From contig NZ_JACHMM010000001.1 in assembly GCF_014204975.1 (NCBI RefSeq), forward strand, positions 6,572,037 to 6,636,036: a stretch of 64,000 nucleotides of DNA, given 5' to 3'. A program made the translations under genes and the position numbers. The notes under the pieces are model-generated. The model searched no databases, was not told the DNA's origin, and saw only the letters and a program-made list of their open reading frames with translations. Of the stretch, positions 35,118 through 39,368 are shown piece after piece. The DNA comes from Jiangella mangrovi (lineage in GTDB: Bacteria; Actinomycetota; Actinomycetes; Jiangellales; Jiangellaceae). The stretch's first letter is position 1. Each line of letters begins with the position of its first letter.

Positions 35118-35269
35118 CTTCGCCTCCCCATCAGCGCCGTTCTCTCCGCCCCGACAGTACGGTCCGGCACCGACGGAACGACCACCGGCCTCGTGTTGCC
35201 CACGTCACACGAAAATTCCTCGCGAGCGGGCGTCATGATCGCGCGCCTGCTCTGTCTTGACGGGTACAA

Positions 35270-35310
35270 GGGCGCGTCGTTGCCGCGCAGGGGACGGCAA
35301 CGACGCGCCC
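35270..35310 (+). promoter_or_regulatory. 16-bp perfect hairpin in the leader region of the MFS gene
   Basis: GGGCGCGTCGTTGCCG (35270-35285) pairs exactly with CGGCAACGACGCGCCC (35295-35310). It sits in the 301-bp gap between two outward-reading genes, where no terminator is needed. TTGACG (35257) precedes it and TTGACA (35345) follows it; both could be -35 elements. It may be an attenuator or an operator. The rest of the gap shows no gene. Confidence 0.45.
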
Positions 35311-35418
35311 GATTCAGGTCCTCGCTGACGCGCCCAGGCGCGCCTTGACAAGTCACGCGTCATGCTGTTGCCTTCCGCGTAAAGTTCAGTTTGCCGCGGG
35401 GGGCGGGGGTACATCGAC

Positions 35419-38307: not shown

Positions 38308-38314
38308 GGGGCAC

Positions 38315-38320
38315 ACCCTA
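38315..38320 (-). promoter_or_regulatory. -10 box of gcvT (leaderless)
   Basis: On the minus strand TAGGGT lies 7 nt before GTG 38307. Confidence 0.55.
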
Positions 38321-38382
38321 CGGCGTCCATACCCGCCGTCAGCGGTGACGGCGGCGCGGGTCGCCGAGCAGCTCCGGCGCCA

Positions 38383-38484
38383 ACGGTGTGAGATTGCTGC
38401 GTCGTGCGTGTGGCGTTGCTGTCGCTGGAACAGTCGCTGGAACACCAGTGATGCCACACCGTTGCCGCACCGATCTCACACCGT
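38383..38484. repeat. 102-bp interrupted inverted repeat
   Basis: Perfect 12-bp ends ACGGTGTGAGAT / ATCTCACACCGT. A second pair, GTGTGGC / GCCACAC, lies 13 nt inside each end with equal spacing, followed by partial pairing to about 43 nt per arm. The centre has a tandem GTCGCTGGAACA repeat. It lies between divergent gcvT and the metallophosphoesterase pseudogene (301-bp gap, no other gene). It is a candidate MITE or bidirectional regulatory structure. Confidence 0.55.
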
Positions 38485-38596
38485 CCAGGGCCCGGAAGAT
38501 CGGGTTCTCAGCCATCGGCAACCGGATCCTCGCCATGATCAACTCGGGTGAGGGCGGCGAGCGCAGCGCCGGCGAACGGCGGTGGGTCCGCCCGCC

Positions 38597-38602
38597 TATT
38601 CT
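38597..38602 (+). promoter_or_regulatory. -10 box of the metallophosphoesterase gene (leaderless)
   Basis: TATTCT lies 6 nt before ATG 38609. Confidence 0.5.
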
Positions 38603-38608
38603 CTGGGG

Positions 38609-39368
38609 ATGGTCGCCTCGGTCGCCGTCCTGTCCGACGTCCACGGCGCCCTGCCCGCACTCGAGGCGGTGCTGGCCGAGCCCGACGTGCGGGCGGCCGA
38701 GCGGATCGTGCTCACCGGCGACATCGCGGCCGGGCCGCCGCCGGTCGAGACGCTGGACCGGCTGGTCGCCGAGGGTGAGCGCGTCGTCTGGGCGCGGCAA
38801 CGCCGACCGCGAGCTGGTCGCCGTCGCCCGCGGCGGCACGTCGGGCATCGACGTGTCCGACTGGGCCGGGCGGCAGCTGCGGCCGGACCAGGTCGAGCTG
38901 CTGGCGAGCCTGCCGCACCCGGTGACGCTCGACGTCGACGGGTTCGGGCCGGTGCTGTTCTGCCACGGCACGCCGCGCGACGACGACGAGGTGGTGCTGG
39001 TCGACAGCTCGCTGGCGCGCTGGGCGGAGGTCCTGTCCACCGTCCCGCCCGACGTCCGCACCGTCGTCTGCGGCCACACGCACATGCCGTTCCAGCGGCT
39101 GGTCGACCGCCGGCTGGTCGTCAACCCCGGCAGCGCGGGCATGCCGTACGGCCGACCCGGCCCGCACTGGGCGCTGCTGCGCGACGGCGTCGTGACGCTG
39201 CGGGCCACCGCCGCGGACCTCGAGGCGCTGGCCGACGCCGTCGTCGCGGCCAGCGCATACCCGGCCCGGGCGGAATGGGCGGACGCCTATGCGCGCACCG
39301 TCCACTCCGATGCCGAGGCCCTGACGGTGTTCGCACCGCGAGACGGCCGCGAGGCGACCCGGCGGTAG
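38609..39368 (+). pseudogene. Frameshifted metallophosphoesterase
   Basis: Calcineurin-like phosphoesterase split over two frames. The first frame (38609 to about 38800) gives MVASVAVLSDVHGALPALEA and IVLTGDIAAGPPP, then turns to arginine-rich nonsense after RVVWA. The second frame (from about 38798 to 39368) resumes with RGNADRELVAVARGG, FCHGTPRDDDE and VVCGHTHMPFQRLV. Together these give all the family metal-site blocks (DxH, GD, GN, H, GHTH). Loss of two bases in a GC repeat (CTGGGCGCGGC, about 38789-38799) would explain it; a sequencing error is equally possible. Confidence 0.82.

What the first reader, a model, noticed from the sequence alone, without database searches (positions are those of the whole stretch)
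38383..38484. 102-bp symmetrical repeat between gcvT and the broken phosphoesterase
Exact 12-bp ends, an equally spaced inner 7-bp pair and a central tandem GTCGCTGGAACA make a symmetric element with no gene. It resembles a MITE or a two-way regulatory structure.
Basis: partly seen in the sequence, partly recalled or inferred. Interest (0 to 1): 0.5.

Follow-up and report, generated by a model that had tools for sequence, protein, structure and literature searches.

The report
Palindromic intergenic repeat of Jiangella bacteria
The 102-base palindrome is one copy of a family of about sixty scattered hairpin-forming DNA repeats seen mainly in Jiangella and its close relatives; copies sit mostly beyond the ends of genes, seem to come and go between species, and the enzyme that usually spreads such repeats was not found.

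Summary
It belongs to a dispersed repeat family: 61 places in the window's 7.16-Mb Jiangella genome, typically 90 bp. The window copy is 102 bp through a private 12-bp loop duplication. Relatives carry related subfamilies (19 of 22 Jiangellaceae genomes, own included); outside the family matches are rare and weak. Positions are rarely shared between species: the gcvT/phosphoesterase gap holds no copy in four other Jiangella species. Another copy supplies a gene's stop codon where two relatives have no copy. Copies favour convergent gene ends (26 of 49 gaps) and avoid divergent gaps (1 of 49, the window copy). No general target duplication, T-tract, Rfam family or phage/plasmid match was found, and no Y1 (RAYT) transposase in 22 Jiangellaceae genomes. 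Arms are built from 22-bp units, mostly with an 11-bp sub-period, kept while their letters differ between subfamilies; a second palindrome family shares the core hairpin. Best reading: a REP/BIME-like, non-autonomous interspersed palindrome spread by an unidentified factor. Strict membership in MITEs or RAYT-type REPs is not supported.

The parts
38383..38484 (.). whole palindromic repeat element (family A; 90-bp type plus a private 12-bp loop duplication)
38383..38421 (+). left arm (39 nt)
   Evidence: inverted repeat I1
38446..38484 (-). right arm (39 nt)
   Evidence: inverted repeat I1
38383..38404 (+). 22-bp unit 1 of the left arm (two 11-bp sub-units)
   Evidence: arm periodicity of the family at lags 22 and 11; in this copy D3 (79% over 14 nt at spacing 22)
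38405..38426 (+). 22-bp unit 2 of the left arm
38463..38484 (-). 22-bp unit 1 of the right arm
   Evidence: D5 (85% over 13 nt at spacing 22)
38441..38462 (-). 22-bp unit 2 of the right arm
38419..38448 (.). centre; in other copies a conserved 18-nt core hairpin of the type CTGTCGCCAGAGCGACAG, here expanded by the 12-bp duplication
38421..38444 (+). two tandem copies of GTCGCTGGAACA, in this copy only
38308..38608 (.). divergent gcvT/phosphoesterase gap: about 300 bp here, 31-58 bp (counted by eye on the alignment) in J. endophytica, muralis, ureilytica and asiatica, so about 250 bp including the element is extra here

Best explanation
The element is a solitary copy of a repetitive extragenic palindrome found mainly in Jiangellaceae, REP/BIME-like in behaviour. 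Shown: it is one of about 60 dispersed, diverged, hairpin-forming repeats of about 90 bp, nearly all outside genes, mostly in convergent or tandem gaps, single or in doublets, and rarely at the same place in other species. Inferred: it spreads as a non-autonomous element by an unidentified enzyme or template-switching process, which probably recognises the 22-bp units of the arms and/or the conserved core hairpin in single-stranded form; copies survive where they do not break promoters. At gene ends the strong hairpin may protect or end transcripts, as a by-product; this was not tested. In the window it lies between two divergent genes and carries a later 12-bp loop duplication.
For: Copy number: 134 strand-hits of model R1 in the own genome at E<=1 collapse to 69 places (one further weak hit at 4872642 was merged with its neighbour), 61 of which I assign to this family by eye. 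Lineage: 19 of 22 Jiangellaceae genomes (own included) and 1 of 18 others; 13 Jiangellaceae and 2 other genomes of 197. Turnover: no copy in the gcvT/phosphoesterase gap of 4 of 4 Jiangella species with the same neighbours; of 40 element loci from five relatives, 4 share 200 bp or more of flank similarity with an own element locus. At 2551522 the element follows directly on a gene's last codons and supplies its TGA stop; G011 and G010 have 22 and 34 bp between the aligned flanks where the own genome has 105 and 117, and no R1 match there. Location: 26 convergent, 22 tandem, 1 divergent gap against 33, 93, 62 among 188 gaps of 100 bp or more in 464 kb of the same genome. Doublets: 9 pairs, 1 triple and 48 singles among the 69 own places, and about 225-bp doublets in J. 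muralis. Palindrome kept across subfamilies: 84 elements, 295 two-sided changes against 163+/-14 in shuffles.
Against: No enzyme was identified, and the known REP partner is missing: 0 of 22 family genomes have a Y1 match. No movement was seen directly. 16 own copies alone show no excess covariation, and within subfamilies the excess is small. At the window locus the exact empty site could not be read; about 150 bp besides the element is also extra there. Relatives' loci were a sample (40 loci, 28 from one genome). One relative, G003, does have a family element about 330 bp from the aligned part of the gene downstream of the 2551522 copy, so some gaps may be reused or share old copies; the dipeptide-transporter gap L211/L231 also holds elements in two species.
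Confidence: 0.72

Rival explanations
1. A classical MITE: the two ends of a DDE insertion sequence with the interior lost, moved by an autonomous copy's transposase with target-site duplication.
For: Terminal inverted repeats, about 90 bp, about 60 copies, turnover between species. The window copy and the copy at 161497 have 3-base direct repeats (CCA, TGA) exactly at their junctions. Repeated units per end would fit several transposase sites.
Against: Over 53 copies of 85-102 bp, exact junction repeats are 0 bases in 44, 1 in 7, 3 in 2; mean 0.25 against 0.32 with mismatched flanks (397 of 500 shuffles as high). For 15 chosen copies 0.53 against 0.30+/-0.16 (56 of 500 as high), and allowing offsets 2.6 against 2.31+/-0.27 (84 of 500). 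No longer element with the same ends was noticed among the 30 of 44 end-motif sites shown. The palindrome runs through the whole element. The 25 Pfam families listed (of 131 found) for 115 neighbouring proteins include no transposase.
Confidence: 0.12
2. A functional bidirectional transcription terminator or mRNA 3'-end stabiliser kept by selection for that role.
For: Preference for convergent gaps; very stable hairpins in the five strands folded.
Against: No T-tract: the longest T run (or A run on the other side) within 15 nt is 0-2 in 66 of 69 places, 3 in 2, 4 in 1. Positions rarely shared between species in the sample. The window copy lies upstream of both neighbours.
Confidence: 0.1
3. 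An array of binding sites for a lineage-specific DNA-binding protein (regulator, nucleoid or segregation factor): the 22-bp units are its operators and the palindrome is two opposed arrays.
For: Lag-22 self-similarity in five of five multi-member subfamily consensuses (0-1 of 2000 shuffles as high) and lag-11 in four of five; unit letters appear to change together between subfamilies (my reading).
Against: Positions turn over and neighbours share no obvious function; only one of 49 gaps is divergent.
Confidence: 0.06

Closest known systems
REP sequences / BIMEs / REPINs with RAYT (TnpA-REP, Y1 family)
   Same: Dispersed intergenic hairpin repeats, inverted doublets, predominance between convergent and same-direction genes (passages of PMC3733652 and PMC3116915), non-coding.
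   Different: About 90 bp palindromic throughout, not 20-50 nt (size from a passage of PMC8266576); no GTAG at the ends (2 of 61); arms of 22/11-bp units; no Y1 transposase in 22 family genomes.
MITEs
   Same: About 100 bp, inverted ends, multi-copy, non-coding (definition from a passage of PMC3116915).
   Different: No general target-site duplication; no autonomous partner seen; palindromic throughout.
Intrinsic bidirectional terminators
   Same: Stable symmetric hairpins between convergent genes.
   Different: No T-tracts; a homologous dispersed family.
Iteron arrays and multi-site transposon ends (recalled; no call)
   Same: About 22-bp repeated units.
   Different: A resemblance from memory only; no replication or Tn7-type gene was looked for.

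Membership tests
RAYT-associated REP / REPIN | Dispersed extragenic palindromes in many copies | tested here: met
   61 family places in own genome; 1 of 69 listed places mostly inside a predicted gene
RAYT-associated REP / REPIN | Y1 (PF01797) REP-associated transposase in the genome | tested here: not met
   0 of 22 Jiangellaceae genomes including own; 5 of 14 control genomes ring
RAYT-associated REP / REPIN | GTAG tetranucleotide next to the hairpin | tested here: not met
   2 of 61 places have GTAG near an end, shuffled mean 5.9
CGTC-tagged REP super-family (PMC3733652) | CGTC tag at one end | tested here: inconclusive
   29 of 61 places have CGTC or its complement near an end, against 14.1 by shuffling and 21.1 from intergenic 12-mers (P 0.025; 11 of 15 window-type copies, P 0.0025). 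Most are the element's own terminal ACG with a G before it (19 of 122 ends); no other offset exceeds 3 of 122
RAYT-associated REP / REPIN | REP unit of 20-50 nt | tested here: not met
   typical length 90; one 46-bp form among 61. The 46-50-bp second family would fit this size
MITE | Inverted ends, about 100 bp or more, multi-copy | tested here: met
MITE | Target-site duplications | tested here: not met
   no excess over 53 copies, though the window copy has CCA on both sides
MITE | Autonomous element with the same ends | tested here: inconclusive
   none noticed among 30 of 44 end-motif sites viewed in own genome; other genomes not searched for it
Intrinsic terminator | Hairpin followed by a T-tract | tested here: not met
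Structured RNA family in Rfam | Match at gathering score | tested here: not met
   7 element loci gave only a neighbouring tRNA; the window stretch stays below the threshold of every listed family

The most novel reading that the evidence does not exclude
These are a new class of mobile palindromes: two opposed arrays of 22-bp (2 x 11) recognition units around a core hairpin that is shared by at least two arm families. They would be spread by an unknown, non-Y1 enzyme of Jiangellaceae that co-evolves with the units, since unit letters seem to change together at several places of one element in other species.
Probability: 0.3. Interest if true: 0.68.

Novelty: new variant of a known kind. Interest (0 to 1): 0.45.

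Why it matters
REP-like repeats are usually explained by the RAYT transposase. A bacterial family with a rich REP-like population that differs between species, and no Y1 transposase in any of 22 genomes searched, is a clean setting in which to look for a second way of spreading. The repeated 22-bp units give a concrete bait for the protein responsible.

Tried and rejected
Rfam: no family. Y1 transposase: none. Phage and plasmid records with one 90-bp copy, L004: no match. Covariation on 16 own copies: none above shuffles; on 84 elements of own genome and relatives (from the 150 best of 207 matches): strong excess, mostly between subfamilies; that alignment was fitted to the structure and leans towards it. 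Target-site duplication, T-tracts, GTAG tag: none; CGTC tag: inconclusive. Neighbouring genes (115 proteins): the most frequent family, MFS_1, is in 5; only 25 of 131 families were shown. One gap with elements in own genome (L211) and J. muralis (L231), with flank similarity also to G008 L263, looked like a possible source locus; the ORFs I read there were ordinary. The extra 38485-38612 stretch has no good repeat among the own-genome pieces held. Paper searches: none of the listed papers is, by title and abstract start, about Jiangella repeats; subscription papers are not held, so this is weak. Of the 69 places I dropped 8 (7 of the second palindrome family, 1 apparent chance hairpin) before the family counts; with them the gaps are 32 convergent, 24 tandem, 1 divergent of 57.

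Full report
OBSERVATION. The described symmetry is real and exact, and folding is far beyond dinucleotide shuffles (z -5.05 and -4.80 for the two strands). Neighbours: gcvT on the minus strand (PF01571, PF08669) and, on the plus strand, a phosphoesterase (PF12850 in one frame) whose reading frame is interrupted relative to orthologues.

IT IS A REPEAT FAMILY. BLAST of the element against its own 7.16-Mb single-contig genome gave 19 matches. The end motif with at most 1 mismatch occurs 44 times against 0 for the reversed control. The usual length is 90 bp; the window copy alone is 102, through the central tandem duplication. A covariance model (R1, 16 copies) gave 134 strand-hits at E<=1, which I collapsed to 69 places and looked at one by one; one more weak hit (4872642) was merged with its neighbour. 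By eye 61 belong to this family, 7 to a second palindrome family with the same core, 1 looks like chance.

HOST AND DISTRIBUTION. The seven best gcvT orthologues, 88-94% identical, are all from Jiangella, so the host is a Jiangella species. Relative G009 has a contig of the same length as a J. muralis record. R1 at E<=0.01 matched 20 of 40 genomes, own included: 19 of 22 Jiangellaceae and 1 of 18 others. In 197 genomes of the class, with stricter filters and E<=0.001, 15 matched: 13 Jiangellaceae and 2 weak ones elsewhere; at least 3 Jiangellaceae did not. No match in phage or plasmid records for one copy.

TURNOVER. In J. ureilytica, endophytica, muralis and asiatica gcvT and the phosphoesterase are 31-58 bp apart (counted by eye) with no element, against about 300 bp in the window; in J. 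rhizosphaerae, aurantiaca and anatolica other sequence follows. For the copy at 5968282, ten relatives' loci have no R1 match at E<=0.01, but the gene on the other side is adjacent in few of them and the junction is not clean. The copy at 2551522 follows immediately on a conserved C-terminus and supplies a new TGA stop; G011 and G010 have both flanking genes and only 22 and 34 bp in between, with no R1 match there. In most other relatives the two genes are not adjacent; in one of them, G003, a family element lies about 330 bp from the aligned part of the downstream gene, which may be a second hit on a favoured gap or an older shared copy. Of 40 element loci from five relatives (28 from J. muralis, G009), 4 had 200 bp or more of flank similarity with an own element locus, one of them at only 71%. 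So copies are mostly not shared between species in this sample.

LOCATION. With a simple codon-model gene finder trained on the window, the family-A places fall in 49 gaps: 26 convergent, 22 tandem, 1 divergent; one place lies mostly inside a predicted gene. Background from 464 kb of the same genome (window plus 20 stretches): of 188 gaps of 100 bp or more 33 are convergent, 93 tandem, 62 divergent; by bases 24% and 29% are convergent and divergent. Binomial P is 1.1e-5 for the convergent excess and 1.8e-6 for the divergent lack. The single divergent case is the window copy. The gene finder is crude but the same for both sets. REPs are reported to lie predominantly between convergent and same-direction genes (PMC3733652, passages).

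ANATOMY. Each arm consists of 22-bp units with an 11-bp sub-period. Over 78 arms of 39 own 90-bp copies, self-match is 0.62 at lag 22 and 0.49 at lag 11 against 0.27 by shuffling. Of five multi-member subfamily consensuses, including one from another genus (G017), all exceed shuffles at lag 22 (0-1 of 2000 as high; one of them is marginally higher at lag 11) and four of five at lag 11 (0-10 of 2000); one J. muralis-rich subfamily does not (526 of 2000). Between subfamilies the unit letters appear to change together at several places of one element; this is my reading of the consensuses, not a formal test. A second family (TGGTTGAGGGAT...ATCCCTCAACCA; 10 exact places in own genome against 0 for the reversed pattern; more with mismatches) has different arms but the same type of core, GTGTCGCCAGGGCGACAC. 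Own places are 48 single, 9 pairs, 1 triple within 250 bp; in J. muralis many form doublets of about 225 bp within larger mosaics.

STRUCTURE EVIDENCE. 16 copies: no excess covariation. 84 elements, one strand each: 79.5% paired against 74.6+/-0.4%, and 295 two-sided changes against 163+/-14. Shuffling only within subfamilies (thresholds 0.25-0.35) leaves 295 against 272-277+/-8-10 (0 of 100 as high), while the pairing excess is under one point and is reached by 0-6 of 100 shuffles. The palindrome thus persists while sequences diverge between subfamilies, with a weak signal inside them; the alignment was fitted to the structure, which favours it.

WHAT MOVES IT. Y1 transposase, the known REP partner, has no match in 22 Jiangellaceae genomes, while 5 of 14 control genomes ring. 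Exact junction repeats over 53 copies are no longer than with mismatched flanks, although the window copy has CCA on both sides. There are no T-tracts and no GTAG tag (2 of 61); a CGTC-type signal near the ends is modestly above background and mostly the element's own terminal letters. The mechanism is therefore unknown; recognition of the units or of the core in hairpin form is inference.

VERDICT. It works like a REP/BIME-type repeat but is not a member of the RAYT-associated REP family as defined (transposase, GTAG tag and unit size tested and not met; CGTC tag inconclusive).

Noticed in passing
window 35269-35311: GC-rich hairpin with a 16-bp stem (GGGCGCGTCGTTGCCG / CGGCAACGACGCGCCC) in a gap before a transporter-like ORF, almost letter-identical in five other Jiangella species; conserved, unlike the finding.
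   Followed up: partly
window about 38609-39368: Phosphoesterase reading frame is interrupted near 38790 relative to Jiangella orthologues; real frameshift or sequencing error not decided.
   Followed up: partly
L307-L315 and L291-L300 (own genome): Second palindrome family, 46-50 bp, TGGTTGAGGGAT arms, sharing the core hairpin type of family A; two pairs of copies about 140-160 bp apart.
   Followed up: partly
L246, L249 (J. muralis, G009): A further long palindrome (arms around ACCATGATCATGGCGC) with a similar GTTGCCAGAGCAGC centre near family-A elements.
   Followed up: no
L178, L183, L196, L197, L199 (own genome): Similar composites of two family-A subtypes in opposite orientation with a spacer, about 235-304 bp in all.
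   Followed up: partly
L324 at 2194-2283 (G003): A family element near the orthologue of the gene downstream of the own copy at 2551522, suggesting reuse of some gaps or an old shared copy.
   Followed up: no
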